Positions 14,402-22,457 of a stretch of DNA of 64,000 bases are shown here, in pieces; position 1 is the first letter of the stretch; every line of letters starts with the position of its first letter. The position numbers and the translations under genes are program-made. This DNA is from Mycobacterium mantenii (GTDB taxonomy: Bacteria > Actinomycetota > Actinomycetes > Mycobacteriales > Mycobacteriaceae). The DNA is taken from assembly GCF_010731775.1 (NCBI RefSeq), contig NZ_AP022590.1, forward strand, positions 4,526,001-4,590,000, given 5' to 3'. The notes under the pieces are model-generated. The model was given only the letters and a program-made list of their open reading frames with translations. It searched no databases and had not been told where the DNA came from.

Positions 14402-15622
14402 TCAGCCCACGCGCGGGCCGGGCGTGAATTTGATCGGGAGCTTGCGTACCGCATAAACCTCGCCGGCGTCCTCGAATCGTTCGTAATCGCCGGCGAGTTC
14501 AAAGTCGGGCAGGCGTTCCAAGATCTGGGTGATCATGACCTGGAACATCATCTTGGCGTAGTGCGAGCCCAGGCAGCGGTGTATCCCCACGCCGAAAGCC
14601 ATCTGCTTCTTGGCGTTCGCGCGGGAGAGGTCGAGTGTGTCGGGATCGTCGAACATGGCCGGGTCGCGGTTGGCCGCCGCCCACATCAGGATCGCCCGGT
14701 CGCCCTGGCACATCGGCTGACCATGGAATTCGGTGTCCCGCGAAACCGTGCGAGCCAGCCCAAGCGTCGGGGTGAACACCCGGAGCAGTTCGTCAGTGCC
14801 GTTTTTCACCAGGCTCGGGTCGGCGATCAGTTGGCGGCGCAGCTCGGGGTCTTGGCATAGCCGCAGCAGCACGTTGCCGGTGAATCCGCTGGTGGTGTCC
14901 ATCCCACCCAGCATCATCAGGAAGCCGTACATGGTGATCTGGATGTCGTCGAGCGGTTGACCGTCCAAAGTGCCGCGCAATATGTCGCTGAACAGGTCGT
15001 CACCCAGGCCCTCGGCGCGCCGTTCCTCCATCTGCTTGTTGATCTCGCCGAATAGCTCCATACCGGCCATGCCGGCCTTTTCGGGGTCATGGGCGCGCTC
15101 GTGGACGGTGGTGTGCACCCAGTGCACCCAGTCCATCGCCCGCGACTCATCCCACTTGAGCAGTCGCAGAATGAGCCGTGCCGGGACCGGCGTCGTCAAC
15201 TCGCCGACGATGTCGCATTCGCCGCGTTCGATGAATTCGTCGATCGCCGCATTGGTGATGTCGACGGCCGCCGATCGGGCTCGCTCGGCAGACCCGGGGG
15301 AGAACTGCCGCAGTGTCACCTCGCGTAGTTCCTGGGTGTGCGGCGGGTCGGATTCGATGGGCAGAATCGGGAACGGTATGCCGCTGGCCGGCACGCCCAC
15401 CGACGGATAGGAGTTGAACAGGTCGTCGTCGCGGGCCGCTTCGAAGACAGACGCGTAGTCGACCAACGCCCAGAATCCGTCGTAGTGCTCGGAATGTGCG
15501 ACCGGACAGCCTGATTCGCGCATCTCGCGGAACCGGCTGTAGGGGTCCTCGCGGAACTCGGGCGAGTGGTGGTCGAGGTCAACCTCGGCGCGTGGGCGCG
15601 ACTCCGCCTGGGTGTCGGTCAT
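14402..15622 (-). CDS. Cytochrome P450
   Basis: A 406-residue bacterial cytosolic P450. The I-helix oxygen-activating motif is GGMDTT (239-244), the K-helix ExxR is Glu278-Arg281, and the heme loop is FGVGIHRCLG with Cys350 as thiolate ligand. It would hydroxylate a hydrophobic substrate using ferredoxin electrons. No reductase is adjacent; the only [3Fe-4S]-type ferredoxin in the window is at 39226. It lies between the thiolase-like gene and the acyl-CoA ligase in one leftward run, which suggests hydroxylation of the same substrate that is later ligated to CoA. Confidence 0.95.
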   Translation of the reverse strand: MTDTQAESRPRAEVDLDHHSPEFREDPYSRFREMRESGCPVAHSEHYDGFWALVDYASVFEAARDDDLFNSYPSVGVPASGIPFPILPIESDPPHTQELREVTLRQFSPGSAERARSAAVDITNAAIDEFIERGECDIVGELTTPVPARLILRLLKWDESRAMDWVHWVHTTVHERAHDPEKAGMAGMELFGEINKQMEERRAEGLGDDLFSDILRGTLDGQPLDDIQITMYGFLMMLGGMDTTSGFTGNVLLRLCQDPELRRQLIADPSLVKNGTDELLRVFTPTLGLARTVSRDTEFHGQPMCQGDRAILMWAAANRDPAMFDDPDTLDLSRANAKKQMAFGVGIHRCLGSHYAKMMFQVMITQILERLPDFELAGDYERFEDAGEVYAVRKLPIKFTPGPRVG

Positions 15623-15648
15623 CGGCGCTATTCCCTTCGCTTTGGCGG

Positions 15649-16803
15649 CTACTTGGAGAAGATGGCGACGGCCGCGGTTCCGGGTGCGCCGTACAGCTGG
15701 GCCAGCCCGACCTGCGGATCGTTGGGCACCTGACGGTCACCCGCAGTGCCGCGCAGTTGCTGGACCAGCTCGTAGACCTGGCGAAGGCCGGACGCCCCGA
15801 CCGGTTCGCCGTTGGCCAGCAGGCCACCGTCGGTGTTGATGGGTAGCCGCCCACCGATCTTGGTGGCGCCGTCGGCGAGCAGCGCTTCCTGTTCGCCGTC
15901 TTTGCACAGCCCCGTCTCGGCCATGTGGATGATCTCGGACCCGGAGTCGGTGTCCTGCACTTGCGCAACGTCGATGTCCTCGGGGCCGATGCCGGCCAGC
16001 TCGTAGGCGGCGCGGGCGGCTTCGGCGGTGGTGCCGGGCACGATGGGTAGCTCGATCGAGGTACGCAACAGCTCGTAGGCGCCCTCGCGGCGGCTGCGCA
16101 GCGCGGTCGAGCGAAGGTAGATCGGGGTGTCGGTGTACTGCTTGGCTTTATCGGCCCGGCACACCACCACGGCGGCAGCGCCTTCGTTCGGGTTGCAGTA
16201 CATGTATTGGCGCAGTGGGGCATTCACAACCGGAGAGCTCAGGATCGCGTCGACGCTCATCGGCTTGCGGCGCCACGCGTGCGGCGCCAGCGCCCCGTTT
16301 TCGAAGTTCTTGGCCGCCACGCGGGCCAGCGTCTCTTCGGTGATGCCATGGTCGTGCATGTAGCGCATGACCTTGGTGCCGAAGTAGTGCGTAGTCAGGA
16401 ACATGCCCTGATCGCCGTACCACTGCGGCAGCCCCGACACCGACGGGTCGGCGCCGAACGCGCCGCGGGGATGCTTGTCCAGGCCGACGCCTACCGCGAT
16501 GTCGGCTTCGCCGAGCTGGACGTCTCGCGCGGCGAGCGTCAACAGCGAGTTACCGGTCGCGCAGCCGCTGAGCGTGGCCCGTGCCGGGAGTCCGGTCATT
16601 CCGGCCAGCCCGGTCACCGCCTCGGGGTTGGCCACCTCGAGGCTGCCCGCGTAGAGGCTGCCGACGTCGGACCATTGCACCCCGGCGTCGCGCAGTGCCC
16701 TGCTGATCGCCACCGCGCCCATCTCCAGCGCCGAGCGGTCCTCGTACCGCCCGAAGGGATGAAGGCCGACACCGATGATGGCGATTTCGGGCGTACTGCT
16801 CAT
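15649..16803 (-). CDS. SCP2-type thiolase (lipid-transfer/acetyltransferase family)
   Basis: A 384-residue thiolase-fold protein of the SCP2/Ltp group. The nucleophile is Cys81 in LSGCATGNS. The C-terminal GHP motif of classical thiolases is replaced by GEPVGASGLRQV, a change common in this branch. It would cleave a 3-ketoacyl-CoA or a related substrate. ATG at 16803 follows GGAGGGA; the much longer frame upstream crosses the promoter region and was rejected. First gene of a leftward run with P450, ligase and ACADs, divergent from the ligase at 16978. Confidence 0.88.
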   Translation of the reverse strand: MSSTPEIAIIGVGLHPFGRYEDRSALEMGAVAISRALRDAGVQWSDVGSLYAGSLEVANPEAVTGLAGMTGLPARATLSGCATGNSLLTLAARDVQLGEADIAVGVGLDKHPRGAFGADPSVSGLPQWYGDQGMFLTTHYFGTKVMRYMHDHGITEETLARVAAKNFENGALAPHAWRRKPMSVDAILSSPVVNAPLRQYMYCNPNEGAAAVVVCRADKAKQYTDTPIYLRSTALRSRREGAYELLRTSIELPIVPGTTAEAARAAYELAGIGPEDIDVAQVQDTDSGSEIIHMAETGLCKDGEQEALLADGATKIGGRLPINTDGGLLANGEPVGASGLRQVYELVQQLRGTAGDRQVPNDPQVGLAQLYGAPGTAAVAIFSK

Positions 16804-16977: not shown

Positions 16978-18477
16978 TTGAGTATTTCGTTGCTTCTGGA
17001 GATGGCGGCGTCGGGTGAGCCCGACCGGGTTGCCTTGGTGGACGGCGACATTCGGTTGACGAGCGCGGGTCTCAGCGAGCTCGCCGACGGCGGCGCAGGC
17101 GTGATTGCCGCATCCGGGGCGTCCCACGTCGTCTATGTCGGCACCGGGGGAGTGTTGCTCCCGCTGCTGATGTTCTCGTCGGCGCGTGCGAACCGGGCGT
17201 TCACGCCGCTGAACTATCGACTGAGTGCCGACGGGTTACGACAGCTCATCGACCGGCTGCCCGATCCGCTGATCGTCGTCGACGTCGACTACCGCGACGT
17301 CGTGGCCGGTTTCGGCCGGCCGATGATGACGTCCAACGAGTTCGTCGAGGCCGCGCGATCCACCGAGCCTGTCTCGGCCTTCGCCGACCCCGACGACGTG
17401 GCGGTGGTGCTGTTCACCTCGGGCACCACGTCGCGACCCAAAGCCGTTGAGCTGACCCACAACAACCTGACCAGCTATGTCACCGGCACCGTCGAGTTCG
17501 GTTCTGCCGATCCCGCCGACGCGGCGCTGGTGTGCGTCCCGCCGTATCACATCGCGGGGGTCGGCGCCGCACTGTCAAACCTGTACGCCGGGCGTTCGAT
17601 CGTGTACCTGCGCCGGTTCGACCCGCAGGAATGGGTTCGGCTGGTCCGCGACGAGCGGGTCACCACCGCGACCGTGGTGCCGACCATGCTGTCCCGCATC
17701 GTCGCGGTCCTCGAGGAGCAGTCCGCTGAGCTTCCGTCGCTGCGCAACTTCGCCTACGGCGGATCGAAGGTGGCGCGTCCCCTGGTCCGGCGGGCACTCG
17801 ACCTGCTGCCGCAGGTCGGCTTCGTCAACGCCTACGGGCTGACCGAGACCAGTTCGACCATCGCGGTGCTCACGCCCGAGGACCATCGCCTCGCCCACTC
17901 GGCGCAGGACGACGCCGTCGCCCGGCGACTGAGTTCGGTCGGTCGCCCGGTCCCCGACATCGAGGTGCAGATCCGCGCGCAGGACGGCGCCGTGCTCGGG
18001 CCGGGCGAGGCTGGTGAGCTGTTCGTGCGGGGCCCGCAGGTGTCGGGCCGGTACGCAGAGATCGGGTCGGTGCTCGATGCGGAGGGCTGGTTTCCGACCA
18101 GGGACGTTGCGATGCTCGATGAGGACGGCTACCTCTTCATCGGCGGTCGGTCCGACGACACCATCATCCGCGGCGGTGAGAACATCGCTCCGTCGGAAAT
18201 CGAGGACGTGCTCGTTGAGCACCCCGATGTCCGCGAGGTCGTCGTCGTCGGACTGGATGACGCCGAGTGGGGGCAGATCATCGTGGCGGTGATCGTGCCC
18301 GAGGCCGGTGCCGCGCCGACACCCGAGCAGCTGCGCGAGTTCGCCCGCCGCACGCTGCGCGGGTCGCGTACGCCGGACCGCATCGTGTTCCGCGAGGAGC
18401 TCCCGACCACGCCGACCGGCAAGGTGCTGCGCCGGGAAATCCTCGACGACCTCACGCCGGCGGCTGCCGAGCACTGA
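16978..18477 (+). CDS. Acyl-CoA synthetase (AMP-forming)
   Basis: A 499-residue ANL-family ligase with the P-loop LFTSGTTSRPKAVELTH, the acyl pocket segment VNAYGLTETSS, the hinge GRSDDTIIRGGENIAP and the C-terminal Lys in TTPTGKVLRR. It starts with TTG at 16978 after GAGGGAC, the only start that keeps the full N-terminal domain. It heads a rightward set with a small two-Cys protein, an AveC-like membrane protein and a broken phosphotransferase. It probably activates a carboxylic acid for the pathway around it, but substrate selectivity cannot be read. Confidence 0.92.
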   Translation: MSISLLLEMAASGEPDRVALVDGDIRLTSAGLSELADGGAGVIAASGASHVVYVGTGGVLLPLLMFSSARANRAFTPLNYRLSADGLRQLIDRLPDPLIVVDVDYRDVVAGFGRPMMTSNEFVEAARSTEPVSAFADPDDVAVVLFTSGTTSRPKAVELTHNNLTSYVTGTVEFGSADPADAALVCVPPYHIAGVGAALSNLYAGRSIVYLRRFDPQEWVRLVRDERVTTATVVPTMLSRIVAVLEEQSAELPSLRNFAYGGSKVARPLVRRALDLLPQVGFVNAYGLTETSSTIAVLTPEDHRLAHSAQDDAVARRLSSVGRPVPDIEVQIRAQDGAVLGPGEAGELFVRGPQVSGRYAEIGSVLDAEGWFPTRDVAMLDEDGYLFIGGRSDDTIIRGGENIAPSEIEDVLVEHPDVREVVVVGLDDAEWGQIIVAVIVPEAGAAPTPEQLREFARRTLRGSRTPDRIVFREELPTTPTGKVLRREILDDLTPAAAEH

Positions 18478-18515
18478 AACTGAAACTTCTCCCTCGAGAC
18501 AGCAAGGAGTCCGAC

Positions 18516-18818
18516 ATGATCAAGAACGGCACGCGCCTGCAGAGCCAGGTGTGTGACACCCAGGTGATCGTCGTCAAAGCCGCTGAAAGCCTGGACGATC
18601 TGCGTTGCGGAGGCAGGCCGATGCTGCCGCTCGACGCGGAGCGGCCCGCCGATGCCGCGCCCGACCCGGCCTTCGCCGAGGGCAGCACGATGGGTAAGCG
18701 CTACGTCGACGACGGCGGCGCCGAGGTGCTGGTCACCAAGGCCGGTGCCGGGTCACTCAGCGTCGGCGCGACGCCGTTGGTGCTCAAGGAAGCCAAGCCG
18801 CTGCCGGCCAGCGACTGA
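18516..18818 (+). CDS. Small two-Cys protein, unknown function
   Basis: A 100-residue protein with an AGCAAGGAG ribosome site, ending with an ATGA overlap onto the AveC-like gene. Two Cys stand out, in LQSQVCDTQVIVV and in LRCGGRPM, about 20 residues apart, followed by an acidic linker (ADAAPDPAF) and a C-terminal KRYVDDGGAEVLVTKAGAG segment that reads like a beta-hairpin. I do not recognise a named family. Its position between ligase and membrane protein suggests it serves the same pathway. A metal-binding or small carrier role is possible but not supported beyond the two Cys. Confidence 0.8.
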   Translation: MIKNGTRLQSQVCDTQVIVVKAAESLDDLRCGGRPMLPLDAERPADAAPDPAFAEGSTMGKRYVDDGGAEVLVTKAGAGSLSVGATPLVLKEAKPLPASD

Positions 18819-19612
18819 TGACACGTACGAGCCACGGCGTGCTCGCCGCTGGGCCCCTGCCTCCGTCAAACGCCGCATGGCTGATGGAGATTGGCGGTTG
18901 GATCGTCTTCGGTCTGGTGGCCGTGGTCTTGCTCTACCGCTGGCGCAAGAATGGCCGGCCCGACACCGCCGCGCTGCTGTTCATCGGGTGCTTCACCATG
19001 TGGTGGCAGGAGTTCTATGCCGACTGGGGTGCCTATCTGTACTACAACCCGGATCTGTCGCTGCTGCCCTGGGGGAAGAGCCCGTACACCACCCCGAACA
19101 AACCGGTGTACGTGTTGGCCGGCTACGGCTGGTTCTATGCAGGCGGATTCGCCGCGGTCCTGGCCCTGTTCCGCTGGTTCCGCCGCCGCAATGCCTCAGT
19201 AAATTACGTTGCTGCCCTGGTGATCACCGTGTTCGTTCCGTTCATCTTGTGGAACTTCGTCACCGCTGACGGGGTGTCCTATGTGACGAACTGGTTCCAG
19301 TATCTGGAATCGATCGGTCCCACGATCCACACCGACAAGGGCGGCCTGCAGCTGATCTATCAAGGCGTCCCGTTGGCCGTCTTCGCCGTTGCCGTGGTTG
19401 CCAGCCTCGACCGCTGCGGTGCCGACGGGCGCACCTGGTTCGAGCGGGTGCTGGGCGTGCGCGCCGTCATCACCACCGTCGGGCAACGGGCGTATCAGAT
19501 CGTCGTTTGGATCGTCGCTATGAATGTTCTCTATGCGGTGTTCCTGACGCTGCCGCTGGTGATCGCGCGCATCCTGTTCTTCCCCGACAACCCCTGGGTG
19601 CCCAACCCGTGA
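18818..19612 (+). CDS. AveC-like (spirocyclase family) membrane protein, copy 1
   Basis: A 264-residue integral membrane protein. Hydrophobic segments fall near 25-42, 52-64, 100-118, 130-147, 180-200 and 228-255. The family signature is MWWQEFYADWGAYLYYNP followed by PNKPVYVLAGYGWFYAGG, which matches my recollection of proteins annotated as AveC-family spirocyclases. AveC in Streptomyces avermitilis acts in spiroketal formation in avermectin synthesis; the role of mycobacterial homologues is not known to me. A paralogue is encoded convergently at 20461. ATG overlaps the previous stop (ATGA), and its own stop overlaps the GTG of the broken phosphotransferase (GTGA). Confidence 0.8.
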   Translation: MTRTSHGVLAAGPLPPSNAAWLMEIGGWIVFGLVAVVLLYRWRKNGRPDTAALLFIGCFTMWWQEFYADWGAYLYYNPDLSLLPWGKSPYTTPNKPVYVLAGYGWFYAGGFAAVLALFRWFRRRNASVNYVAALVITVFVPFILWNFVTADGVSYVTNWFQYLESIGPTIHTDKGGLQLIYQGVPLAVFAVAVVASLDRCGADGRTWFERVLGVRAVITTVGQRAYQIVVWIVAMNVLYAVFLTLPLVIARILFFPDNPWVPNP

Positions 19613-20533
19613 CTGCCGAGCAGACGATCGATGCGTGGATCGCCAATCGCCTTGGCGCGCGTGTTGTCTCGATCACCCGGCAGTCGCGGTGGCGGGCCGC
19701 CTGGCTGGTGGACGCTGAGCGTGATGGCATCCCGCTTCGATGTCGAGATCGGCCATATCGGCGATCCGATGATGGACCTGGGCGCCCCGCGTATGCGCGA
19801 CACCGTTCTGCACTTCGGCGACTTCACCGCCCTGTATGACGCCTATGAGCGTACCGGTGGCTTTCCAGTCGACCTCGATGCCGTGCAACTGCACCACATC
19901 GCCTTCACGCTCACCAATGAGCTTGCATTCCGGAATTCGTCGAACACGCCGAGCGCCGATTCCGATTACATGACCAACCTGCACTGGTGCAGCGAGACCA
20001 ACCTGCACGCGATCGAGGCACTCGGGGAGCGGCTCGGCATCGATCTCGAGCCGCCCGAGATCCCTGCTGTCGCGCCGACCCGCGCCAGCGTCGCACACGA
20101 GCAGCTCATCAAGATGCTGCGCGGCACTGCCGTTGACGACGACTACGCGACGTATCGCCTACGCGTGGCATTCCGGCTGGCGCGCTATCTGCAGCGCGAG
20201 GACGAAATCGGACGCGACCTGACCAATGCCGACCTCGACGACCTCGTTCCGCTGCTCGGCGCGCGCCCTGCCACGTGGCGCGACGGCGACGCAGCGCTCG
20301 AACAATTCGTGCTGAGTGACCACGGTGAACACGACCGGATGCTCTGTAGTCTCTTCTACCGCCGCCAGATTCGCCACAAGGCCACCCTGGGCCGCCTGGA
20401 TCGGCGATGGCCAGACACCATACGTGTCAGCCGTTCAACGGGCGAATGGTCCCGAGTTGCTCAAGGCACCAACGAATTCGGCGGTAGGAACGCCAACCGG
20501 ATCAGCACCGTCGGCACGATGAAGATCAGGTAG
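19609..20533 (+). pseudogene. Phosphotransferase (aminoglycoside-kinase-like) with internal deletion
   Basis: The N-terminus begins at GTG 19609 (VTAEQTIDAWIANRLG) and stays in one frame to about 19735. From 19736 the coding continues in another frame as FDVEIGHIGDPMMDLG and then YMTNLHWCSETNLHAIEAL, the C-terminal lobe of the aminoglycoside phosphotransferase-like kinase family. The kinase core expected between these parts (roughly 200 residues, including the HxD catalytic loop) is missing, so a deletion with a frame change joined the two ends. Intact relatives are about 400-470 residues. The product is almost surely inactive. The last codons overlap the convergent AveC-like gene, so the natural C-terminus may also be lost. 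Confidence 0.8.
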
Positions 20534-21330
20534 CAGAGATTCATCGTGACGATCCAGGTGAAGATTCGGCGGACGTCGCGTCTGACTCCGGCGATCCGGT
20601 CTACCCGGGCCCAGGATTCAACCAGCGGTGTGCCCAATGGCGTTTTGGCTCCGATGACGAGCAGCGTGATAGTCATCATCGCGGAGAAGGTGAGCACGGG
20701 GTAGAGCAGCGGGAAGTTGCCGCGCGTGCTCTGCATGGCGGGCCCGACAAAGTCGACGTAGCTCCAGATTCCGAGGACCGACGCGCCGCCCTCGATCAGG
20801 GTGTCCCAGATGTAGAAGAACGGCCAACTGACGGCGACCACGACGACCCACAGTTTCGCAGCCGGAAAGAAGCGGGCATGAATCTTCTTGCACGCCCACA
20901 GCATAGGGAAGTAGACCAGGGCGTAGAACCAGCCGTAGGCGGGGATGACTGCCCACGGCTTGTTCGGGCTGGTCAGTGGCCAGTGATAGCCCGGAATCAG
21001 TGCTAAGTGTGGGTTGTAGAGAACGTAGGCGCCCCAGTCGCCGTACCACTCCTGCCACCACATGGTGGTGCCGCCGATGAAGACCAGGGTCGGCAGAGTC
21101 AGTTCCCTGCGTTTGATGCAGGTGTAGGCGAAGAACGCCGCCAACGCTAGCCAGATGAGCGGGCCGATGACTTCGAACAGCCATCCAAATACCGGGGGCT
21201 CTGATCCACGATGACCAGCCTTTCGTATGACTACAATTAATTCTTTCTGTAGTGTCGCTACAGAGTAGGGATGTTGTAGTCTCGCGTCAATGGTGAACGG
21301 GCAGAAGCAAGTTGAGGGGCGACGGAGCAC
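20461..21330 (-). CDS. AveC-like (spirocyclase family) membrane protein, copy 2
   Basis: A multi-pass membrane protein paralogous to the one at 18818: TTMWWQEWYGDWGAYVLYNP, then SPNKPWAVIPAYGWFYALV and a C-terminal WIVTMNLCYLIFIVPTVLIR. The start is unclear. The frame opens with GTG at 21330, which would overlap the divergent TetR start (21290) by 41 bases and run through its operator. No ATG, GTG or TTG follows in frame until inside the first membrane helix. A rare start (ATT or ATA) near 21215-21235 or a truncated 5' end are alternatives. Regulation by the divergent TetR is likely. Confidence 0.78.
   Translation of the reverse strand: MLRRPSTCFCPFTIDARLQHPYSVATLQKELIVVIRKAGHRGSEPPVFGWLFEVIGPLIWLALAAFFAYTCIKRRELTLPTLVFIGGTTMWWQEWYGDWGAYVLYNPHLALIPGYHWPLTSPNKPWAVIPAYGWFYALVYFPMLWACKKIHARFFPAAKLWVVVVAVSWPFFYIWDTLIEGGASVLGIWSYVDFVGPAMQSTRGNFPLLYPVLTFSAMMTITLLVIGAKTPLGTPLVESWARVDRIAGVRRDVRRIFTWIVTMNLCYLIFIVPTVLIRLAFLPPNSLVP
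21248..21262. promoter_or_regulatory. TetR operator candidate, TGTAG-N5-CTACA
   Basis: A perfect inverted repeat TGTAG-TGTCG-CTACA lies 28 bases before the TetR start at 21290, with a further TTGTAG half-site at 21274-21279. The position between divergent genes fits autoregulation plus control of the AveC-like gene. Not tested. Confidence 0.55.
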
Positions 21331-21943
21331 CCGCTGGGGTGCGGCTTCGCCGGCCAGCGATGCCGATGCGCGTGAGCGACTGCTGGACGCCGCTGATGAG
21401 TGTTATGCCCGACGAGGTGTAGCGAGGACCCGTATCGACCACATCGCTGAGGCTGCGGGTGTGCACCGCACCACCGTCTACTCCTATTTTCCTACCAAGA
21501 ATGCGCTGCTGTCCGCCTCGTTCGTGCGCTCGGCGGCCGCGATCCTGGCTACCTCCAAGGCGCACTTCCTGACCGACGAGCCGTTTGTCGAGCAGTTCAT
21601 CAAGGCAACCCTGGAAAGTCTTGCGGCGACTCGAAATTCCCCAACGATGGCTCTCCTCCTGGGGTCGAGTGACTCAGCCGGGCTGACGGTTCATGCCGCC
21701 GCGATGTCGGAGGAGTGGCAGAGCTTGGCGCGTGAAATTTTGGGGCCGCCCCTGATGCAGGCTGTCGCCGACGGGTACGTCCGTGACGACGTACCGGTCG
21801 AAGCGATCTTGCGGTGGATTTGGCGGGTGAGCTTCAGCCTGGCCACCGAACCCGGATCGCCCGAAGACGGCGGGGACGAAGGGGTACTGCGAGCCTTCGT
21901 CGTGGCTTCAGTCATGAGCCCGCACAAACGATCTGCGCCCTAA
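21290..21943 (+). CDS. TetR/AcrR family transcriptional regulator
   Basis: A 217-residue TetR-type repressor. The N-terminal DNA-binding domain covers about 24-70, with the helix-turn-helix IAEAAGVHRTTVYSYFPTKNALL. The C-terminal domain has no assignable ligand. It is divergent from the second AveC-like gene, with the repeat at 21248-21262 between them, and is followed after 11 bases by the DinB-like gene. It probably controls the AveC-like gene and itself (inference). Confidence 0.92.
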   Translation: MVNGQKQVEGRRSTRWGAASPASDADARERLLDAADECYARRGVARTRIDHIAEAAGVHRTTVYSYFPTKNALLSASFVRSAAAILATSKAHFLTDEPFVEQFIKATLESLAATRNSPTMALLLGSSDSAGLTVHAAAMSEEWQSLAREILGPPLMQAVADGYVRDDVPVEAILRWIWRVSFSLATEPGSPEDGGDEGVLRAFVVASVMSPHKRSAP

Positions 21944-21953
21944 GGAGTGGCAC

Positions 21954-22457
21954 ATGGAAGAGACGTGCAGTGAATGTGCGTTCGACGAGTCGCTCGCCCA
22001 ACCCACAGACGTCGCGCTGGCATTACCACCGTTGGCCCCCGTGATCGGTGACGACATCCGCGCCCTGTCCGCAGAGCTGGCCCGACGCCGTCCATCGTCT
22101 GACGTCTGGTCTCCGGTGGAGTACCTCGGGCACCTTCGCGAATCGATGGCCTTCCATCGCGGGCTTATCGAAAGCGCACTCGCCGAAGACAATCCGTTCA
22201 TCCCGATGGTTGACCCCGACAAGTCGGTCGCGAAAGCCGGTTACGCAGACGCCGATATCGGTGCACTGGTCGGTCAGTTCGAGCGCCGCGTTGACCGGCT
22301 TTGCCACCTGCTCGCCGAGCTCGACGGGGGTGCGGTCAACCGCACGCTCACGCTGGATGATCGGCAGGTCACGGTGGGACTCGTCGCGCGCAGCGCATGG
22401 CATGAATGCCATCACCACCGCGGCGACATACGCAGGCTTGGCCGCGCCTCGCCCTAG
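21954..22457 (+). CDS. DinB-like (YfiT/DinB superfamily) protein
   Basis: A 167-residue four-helix DinB-like protein. Family marks are WSPVEYLGHLRESM near the first helix and WHECHHHRGDIRRLG at the C-terminus, whose His residues would bind a metal. It opens with an extra CSEC motif (MEETCSECAFDESL), a small Cys pair seen in some actinobacterial members. Such proteins include thiol-dependent S-transferases using mycothiol or bacillithiol. ATG at 21954 follows AAGGAGTGGC. Its TAG overlaps the stop of the convergent ligase by four bases. Confidence 0.8.
   Translation: MEETCSECAFDESLAQPTDVALALPPLAPVIGDDIRALSAELARRRPSSDVWSPVEYLGHLRESMAFHRGLIESALAEDNPFIPMVDPDKSVAKAGYADADIGALVGQFERRVDRLCHLLAELDGGAVNRTLTLDDRQVTVGLVARSAWHECHHHRGDIRRLGRASP

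What the first reader, a model, noticed from the sequence alone, without database searches (positions are those of the whole stretch)
16978..21943. Twin AveC-like membrane proteins in a cassette with CoA ligase, two-Cys protein, broken kinase and TetR
Two paralogous multi-pass proteins (18818-19612 and 20461-21330) share MWWQE(F/W)Y-DWGAY and PNKP-GYGWFY signatures. In Streptomyces AveC acts in spiroketal formation; no role is known to me in this kind of catabolic neighbourhood. They face each other around a phosphotransferase pseudogene, with a ligase and a 100-residue two-Cys protein translation-coupled upstream and a TetR plus palindrome on the other side. This is the best candidate for an undescribed system: a membrane enzyme pair acting on a CoA-linked or ring substrate.
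Basis: partly seen in the sequence, partly recalled or inferred. Interest (0 to 1): 0.72.

Follow-up and report, generated by a model that had tools for sequence, protein, structure and literature searches.

The report
Remnants of two AveC–TetR modules, spliced
Two membrane proteins related to the avermectin spiroketal enzyme AveC sit together in a mycobacterial breakdown-gene island, but they look like left-overs of two separate regulated gene sets, one of which elsewhere pairs its AveC protein with a P450 oxygenase and the other with a kinase; what they do is unknown.

Summary
AveC2 (20461-21330, -) matches PF17198; AveC1 (18818-19612, +) only through relatives; they are 33% identical. The kinase between them is broken and the TetR is real. 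But this is not one cassette. Ligase plus two-Cys protein is a separate, common mycobacterial pair. AveC1 belongs to a module TetR_A/AveC1-kinase (operator CCGACA-N12-TGTCGG), seen whole in two genomes. AveC2 belongs to a sister module TetR_B/AveC2-P450-ferredoxin plus DinB (operator CTACA-N12-TGTAG), seen whole in one. The window holds a remnant of each, between the two-Cys gene and an amidohydrolase that are neighbours in M. porcinum. Across the wider PF17198 family, genes lie beside a CbbQ-type AAA+ ATPase and a VWA protein (20 of 40 loci, 1 of 40 random places) and P450s (16 against 2); those 40 are of other subfamilies than AveC1/AveC2, for which the oxygenase link rests on single loci. 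Position 65 is Asp or Glu in 61 of 61 aligned members. I infer a membrane acid/base enzyme (dehydration, ketal or ether chemistry) acting on oxygenase products; untested. The twin layout is decay; the AveC / remodeller / oxygenase link is the interesting part, and my paper searches did not find it described.

The parts
16978..18477 (+). AMP-forming acyl-CoA ligase (LIG), first gene of the resident LIG-TWOC pair
   Evidence: PF00501 E 9.6e-61 and PF13193; orthologues at the same place in L019-L022, L029
18516..18818 (+). Two-Cys protein (TWOC), 100 aa, resident partner of LIG; first 36 residues modelled like desulforedoxin
18818..19612 (+). AveC1, predicted membrane protein of the WQEFYADW subfamily of AveC-like proteins; its start overlaps the TWOC stop
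   Evidence: homology to AveC2, relatives with PF17198, model pLDDT 89
19609..20533 (+). Broken phosphotransferase (kinase) gene of the AveC1 module: start and C-terminal part left in different frames, middle not found
   Evidence: whole relatives L024, L025, L077; L025 PF01636 E 3.2e-8
20461..21330 (-). AveC2, PF17198; body about 20464-21207; start displaced compared with relatives
   Evidence: orthologue 82% in L173 with P450 and ferredoxin behind it
21231..21252 (.). Presumed operator copy 1, CTACA-N12-TGTAG
21258..21279 (.). Presumed operator copy 2, CTACA-N12-TGTAG; a copy also lies between AveC2 and TetR in L173
21290..21943 (+). TetR_B, divergent from AveC2
   Evidence: PF00440 E 2.5e-13; 80% (over the parts called as genes) to the TetR beside AveC2 in L173; 46-48% to TetR_A of the AveC1 module
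21954..22457 (+). DinB-superfamily protein (weak match to a bacillithiol transferase model), 10 bp behind TetR_B; in L173 it stands beside a copy of the same palindrome
   Evidence: PF12867 E 5.2e-12, NF009807 E 6.5e-5 below its cut-off; L173 67%, palindrome at L173:162-183
14402..16803 (-). Resident P450 and thiolase, divergent from LIG; conserved neighbours of LIG-TWOC, with or without AveC1
   Evidence: PF00067, PF22691; L019-L022, L029

Best explanation
SUPPORTED BY COMPARISON: 18818-21943 is made of remnants of two related but separate modules behind a resident acyl-CoA ligase / two-Cys gene pair. Module 1 is TetR_A, divergent from AveC1 and its kinase; here TetR_A and its operator are absent, the kinase is broken and AveC1 follows the two-Cys gene with overlapping stop and start. 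Module 2 is TetR_B, divergent from AveC2-P450-ferredoxin, with DinB as a further target; here TetR_B, its palindromes, DinB and AveC2 are present, no P450-ferredoxin follows AveC2 and its start is displaced. INFERRED: the order of events (insertion, then loss); that the sister TetR proteins bind the sister palindromes (same 12-bp spacing, different half-sites) and answer to small molecules. INFERRED: AveC-like proteins are integral membrane enzymes that use an invariant acid (E65 in AveC1; Asp or Glu in all aligned members) to make or break C-O bonds (dehydration, ketal or ether closure or opening) on hydrophobic molecules first oxygenated by a neighbouring P450 or Rieske enzyme, the product then entering CoA-linked breakdown. 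In many loci of the wider family a CbbQ-type AAA+ ATPase and a VWA protein may assemble or reactivate the membrane enzyme or the P450. The substrate class (terpenoid or steroid-like) is a guess from the nearest known P450s.
For: Composite origin: syntenic loci with AveC1 directly behind TWOC (window, L019, L021, L022), with TetR_A between (L020), with no AveC1 (M. porcinum L029: TWOC and amidohydrolase 66 bp apart), and AveC1 with TetR_A elsewhere (L023, L024, L077; L025 with CbbQ and VWA genes between). Whole kinase behind AveC1 in L024, L025, L077. AveC2 orthologue L173 with P450, ferredoxin, TetR 80%, DinB 67% and FadD 73%. Palindromes: CCGACA-N12-TGTCGG in 11 of 198 fetched loci, all of them the four places L020, L023, L024, L077 under several locus numbers; none in the window. 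CTACA-N12-TGTAG in 7 of 198 loci, all of them this place or L173's. Wider family: of 40 hand-picked AveC-like places in 14 genus genomes against 40 random places there, CbbQ 20 v 1, VWA 20 v 1, P450 16 v 2, acyl-CoA dehydrogenase 16 v 4, substrate-binding protein 9 v 0; nearest P450 on the same strand in 14 of 16. Outside the genus, 19 loci: VWA 7, P450 6, CbbQ 4; AveC-CbbQ-VWA-P450 in a row in L176; Hydrocarboniphaga L030 and Solimonas L031 alike. AveC1/AveC2 subfamily (WQE): P450 behind AveC2 in L173, P450 directly in front in L030 and L031, P450 within 5 kb in L032 and L033, Rieske protein near by in L029, CbbQ and VWA beside AveC1 in L025. Acid at position 65 in 61 of 61 rows, at 209 in 60 of 61. 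AveC itself is reported to do spiroketal formation and optional dehydration (introduction of PMC13303154; passages of PMC6490886).
Against: No function was tested. AveC2's whole module was found in one genome only (G110), so the P450-ferredoxin could be a gain there. The 40-locus test does not include the AveC1/AveC2 subfamily: none of the 46 rows from those loci carries WQEF or WQEW. The 40 loci include orthologues of each other, so the p values overstate independence; 10 come from one genome, 6 from another. 12 of the 40 have neither CbbQ nor P450 in the 14 kb read. No kinase of the AveC1 type and no KshA-like Rieske protein occurs in the 40 (0 v 0 each). The window itself has no CbbQ, VWA or substrate-binding gene. 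L025 has TetR_A but no CCGACA palindrome. L026-L028 show no P450 (two of these records end close by). Residue 69 varies (N 35, D 21, A 4, Q 1) and N94, K95, W105 hold in a minority. 6 of 9 AveC1 loci lack a whole kinase. No solved structure resembles the model well enough to place an active site.
Confidence: 0.57

Rival explanations
1. One working system: ligase, two-Cys protein and both AveC proteins act together on a CoA-linked or ring substrate.
For: TWOC-AveC1 overlap; LIG-TWOC-AveC1 order kept in window, L019, L021, L022, so AveC1 at least may now be expressed with the ligase.
Against: LIG-TWOC lives without AveC1 in most of the genus; no AveC2 was seen in L019-L022; AveC2 faces its own TetR; the kinase is broken; AveC2 start displaced.
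Confidence: 0.12
2. AveC-like proteins are not the catalysts but membrane docking, assembly or transport subunits for P450 or Rieske systems, serviced by CbbQ and the VWA protein.
For: CbbQ and VWA near AveC-like genes in 20 of 40 loci, 4 and 7 of 19 outside the genus, and in L030 and L031. Recalled: NorQ/NorD and CbbQ/CbbO act on other enzymes, not on substrates.
Against: Streptomyces AveC is reported to carry out the chemistry itself; an invariant acid (61 of 61) fits catalysis; 20 of 40 loci have no CbbQ in the 14 kb read.
Confidence: 0.23
3. The stretch is decaying debris without present function.
For: Broken kinase, displaced AveC2 start, no P450 and ferredoxin behind AveC2 as in L173, no TetR_A palindrome.
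Against: AveC1 is intact, 80-88% identical to its three nearest full-length relatives and in line with the ligase in three other named species; TetR_B and both palindromes are present.
Confidence: 0.2

Closest known systems
AveC of Streptomyces avermitilis (PF17198, spirocyclase AveC-like)
   Same: Pfam family (AveC2 directly, AveC1 through relatives)
   Different: Here in an acyl-CoA island with TetR, P450, kinase or CbbQ/VWA neighbours in relatives, not in a polyketide cluster; substrate and activity unknown. The AveC sequence itself was not compared
NorQ/NorD and CbbQ/CbbO remodelling pairs
   Same: PF08406 CbbQ C-terminal domain with AAA_5, and a VWA protein beside it, in relatives' loci
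   Different: Found beside AveC-like and P450 genes; whether AveC is the target is untested; not in this window
CYP143 with its ferredoxin
   Same: The P450 behind AveC2 in L173 best matches CYP143 chains (E about 1e-94) and has a 4Fe-4S-type ferredoxin beside it
   Different: Stands behind an AveC-like gene and its TetR; no such pair follows AveC2 in the window
TetR-controlled divergent catabolic operons (KstR-type control of steroid genes, recalled)
   Same: Divergent TetR with palindromes in the shared promoter region
   Different: Palindromes CTACA-N12-TGTAG and CCGACA-N12-TGTCGG; binding and inducer unknown

Membership tests
AveC-like (PF17198) | Score above Pfam gathering cut-off, AveC2 | tested here: met
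   54.4 bits against 26.6
AveC-like (PF17198) | Score above Pfam gathering cut-off, AveC1 itself | tested here: not met
   no PF17198 row at E<=1; relatives at 80-88% carry it and AveC1 is homologous to AveC2, so I treat it as an outlying relative, not a member by Pfam's rule
AveC-like (PF17198) | Acid conserved in the W..(E/D)...(D/N) helix (my own criterion from the alignment) | tested here: met
   position 65 D or E in 61 of 61 rows
AveC-like (PF17198) | Spiroketal formation or dehydration activity | not testable with these tools
   needs enzyme assay
Phosphotransferase (PF01636) | Whole kinase domain | tested here: not met
   no family on the window frames; middle of the protein not found; whole relative L025 meets PF01636, L024 does not
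TetR regulator | TetR_N domain | tested here: met
   PF00440 50 bits against 24
TetR regulator | Binds the palindromes CTACA-N12-TGTAG | not testable with these tools
   two copies present; binding needs an experiment
CbbQ/VWA-linked AveC locus | CbbQ and VWA gene near AveC | tested here: not met
   no CbbQ or VWA match in the whole window; present beside AveC1 in L025
Desulforedoxin-like (two-Cys protein) | Fold | tested here: inconclusive
Desulforedoxin-like (two-Cys protein) | Four Cys metal ligands (recalled) | tested here: not met
   the protein has two cysteines, C13 invariant and C31 nearly so in 22 rows

The most novel reading that the evidence does not exclude
AveC-like proteins, a CbbQ-type AAA+ ATPase, a VWA protein and a P450 form an undescribed membrane-bound oxygenation and C-O bond machine that opens polycyclic hydrophobic molecules for breakdown, spread over Actinomycetes and some Proteobacteria and controlled in part by sister TetR proteins with sister operators; the window is a fossil of two offshoots of it.
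Probability: 0.3. Interest if true: 0.75.

Novelty: new variant of a known kind. Interest (0 to 1): 0.5.

Why it matters
AveC is known from avermectin biosynthesis, yet 45 of 59 genus genomes searched carry PF17198 genes, up to 17 in one. If they are oxygenase partners in breakdown, this gives a testable role to a large unassigned membrane family, to CbbQ/VWA pairs away from their known clients, and to orphan P450s of the CYP143 kind.

Tried and rejected

Papers, search listings unless said otherwise: 'AveC-like' gave one unrelated paper; 'spirocyclase AveC' and 'AveC family' one taxonomy paper (two passages seen); AveC with spiroketal and Mycobacterium three avermectin papers; AveC with spirocyclase five, four on polyketide biosynthesis or production and that taxonomy paper; NorQ, NorD, P450, Mycobacterium three unrelated; spirocyclase, Mycobacterium, P450 one comparative-genomics paper not opened; CbbQ, von Willebrand, P450 none. 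One search was mostly French text; none of the 40 rows listed (of 15,528) holds PF17198 or DUF5135. PMC13303154: outline, abstract and introduction read; PMC6490886: passages only. 'Not found in print' means these searches of open papers only.

Full report
Setting. The window lies in a single-contig genome of 6.19 Mb whose genus, from the relatives found, is Mycobacterium in the broad sense. The genes called in it are largely of acyl-CoA metabolism: ligases, acyl-CoA dehydrogenases, thiolases, CoA transferases, with amidohydrolases, a MaoC and an OB-fold protein.

The observation. The kinase assignment rests on relatives: L025 meets PF01636 at E 3.2e-8, L024 does not; they belong to one sequence cluster with the window's fragment (82% and 78%).

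Ligase and two-Cys protein are residents. Two-Cys relatives are in 64 of 78 genus genomes. In 31 two-Cys loci read (the two of the own genome and the 29 others that one search returned as loci, its best matches) a ligase of the same family ends just upstream in 30. The own genome has a second such pair (L040). P450, thiolase and second ligase to the left are conserved with it in L019-L022, and P450 and thiolase in L029, whose stretch begins there.

AveC1 is a visitor. A protein search found 41 relatives, and 7 of 297 genus genomes, the own included, have a match at E<=1e-40. Nine close loci were read: window, L019-L025, L077 (L024 and L025 are two places in one genome). AveC1 stands directly behind TWOC in 4 of 9 (window, L019, L021, L022), behind TWOC but after a TetR gene in 1 (L020), and elsewhere in 4 (L023 Nocardia, L024, L025, L077). 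TetR_A is divergent and adjacent in L020, L023, L024, L077; in L025 a CbbQ and a VWA gene stand between. A whole kinase follows AveC1 in 3 of 9 (L024, L025, L077), a broken one in the window, none in 5. In M. porcinum (L029) TWOC and the amidohydrolase are neighbours without AveC1; a different AveC-like gene (30%) stands 5.4 kb further on behind a KshA-like Rieske protein, its reductase and a 114-residue piece of the same kinase cluster.

AveC2 is a second visitor. At E<=1e-30, 8 of 297 genus genomes match; besides the own, only G110 has a close copy (81%, plus a second gene at 40%); the other 6 genomes match at 32-36% through their AveC1 genes. In G110 (L173) AveC2 is followed by a P450 and a ferredoxin on the same strand, faces a TetR 80% identical to the window's, and lies near DinB (67%), a wax-ester-synthase-like gene (60%) and a FadD (73%), then genes matching window 44-50 kb. 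The P450 matches CYP143 best among solved structures. In L025 two pieces of an AveC2-like gene lie convergent behind AveC1 and kinase, so that layout is shared, with the decay falling on the other gene.

Regulation. CTACA-N12-TGTAG occurs twice in 64 kb, both between AveC2 and TetR_B, against 0.01 expected; of 198 fetched loci 7 hold it, all being this place or L173's, where a second copy precedes DinB. CCGACA-N12-TGTCGG occurs in 11 of 198 loci, all being the AveC1/TetR_A places L020, L023, L024, L077 under several locus numbers; it is not in the window and not in L025, which has a TetR_A. TetR_A proteins are 70-89% identical to each other and 46-48% to TetR_B. Binding is inferred.

Family. 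PF17198 rings in 45 of 59 genus genomes and 14 of 148 class genomes. Forty places in 14 genus genomes, chosen by hand from the capped listing (6 from one genome, 10 from another), were compared with 40 random places in the same genomes, 14 kb each: CbbQ 20 v 1, VWA 20 v 1, P450 16 v 2, dehydrogenase 16 v 4, substrate-binding protein 9 v 0; amidohydrolase 3 v 2, ligase 3 v 5, thiolase 1 v 1, two-Cys 0 v 0, AveC1-type kinase 0 v 0, KshA-like Rieske 0 v 0, the other kinase type 1 v 0. Two controls hold an AveC gene by chance; without them CbbQ and VWA are 0 of 38. Twelve of the 40 have neither CbbQ nor P450. Loci share ancestry, so the Fisher values are not to be taken as such, and none of the sampled rows is of the WQE subfamily of AveC1 and AveC2. 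Nineteen further loci from other genera of the class gave VWA 7, P450 6, CbbQ 4, without a control. Hydrocarboniphaga and Solimonas records (Gammaproteobacteria, recalled) carry CbbQ, VWA, P450s and AveC-like genes together, one of the AveC-like genes being of the WQE subfamily and directly behind a P450. Of the eight non-AveC1 loci (L026-L033), four show a P450 (L030-L033) and one a Rieske protein (L029); L029's own P450 belongs to the LIG neighbourhood; L026-L028 show none.

Mechanism. AveC1 is modelled as five long helices and a broken pair (pLDDT 89); that they cross the membrane is my reading. Position 65 is acidic in 61 of 61 aligned members, 209 in 60 of 61, Y103 in 60 of 61. Streptomyces AveC is reported to make a spiroketal and optionally dehydrate. 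With P450 or Rieske neighbours, the simplest reading is acid/base C-O chemistry on oxygenated hydrophobic substrates. P450s beside AveC-like genes are nearest to P450cam and kin (L031), P450cin (L176) and CYP143 (L173), hence the guess of terpenoid or steroid-like substrates. The kinase may activate a hydroxyl as a leaving group; this is speculation, and 6 of 9 AveC1 loci lack a whole one. None of this was tested.

Verdict. The twin arrangement is best read as a composite of two decaying modules and not a designed pair. The recurring company of AveC-like proteins, CbbQ/VWA remodellers and oxygenases is the part worth pursuing.

Noticed in passing
window:18516-18818: The two-Cys protein belongs to a large family without a Pfam match here (3826 proteins), partner of an acyl-CoA ligase; its first 36 residues model like desulforedoxin, with two cysteines where that protein has four (the four recalled).
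   Followed up: partly
L036, L038, L176, L180, L030, L031; L039 with P450 only: AveC-like genes together with a CbbQ-type AAA+ ATPase, a VWA protein and a P450.
   Followed up: yes
G069:C1:4463726-4728240: Ten of the listed AveC-like genes lie within 265 kb of one relative's chromosome; that genome has 17.
   Followed up: no
L173:162-183: A second CTACA-N12-TGTAG before the DinB gene suggests a small TetR_B regulon.
   Followed up: partly
window:31430-34814: OB-fold ChsH2-like protein, thiolase, MaoC and lipid-transfer-type thiolase in a row: resembles steroid side-chain retro-aldol genes (the resemblance recalled).
   Followed up: no
window:39497-41776: 759-aa protein with two acyl-CoA dehydrogenase halves in one chain.
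   Followed up: no
window:54889-58311: 1140-aa protein with POR and DUF6537 domains.
   Followed up: no
P0034: An AveC1-like protein (45%) is recorded from a fungus, Lepidopterella palustris: transfer or contamination.
   Followed up: no
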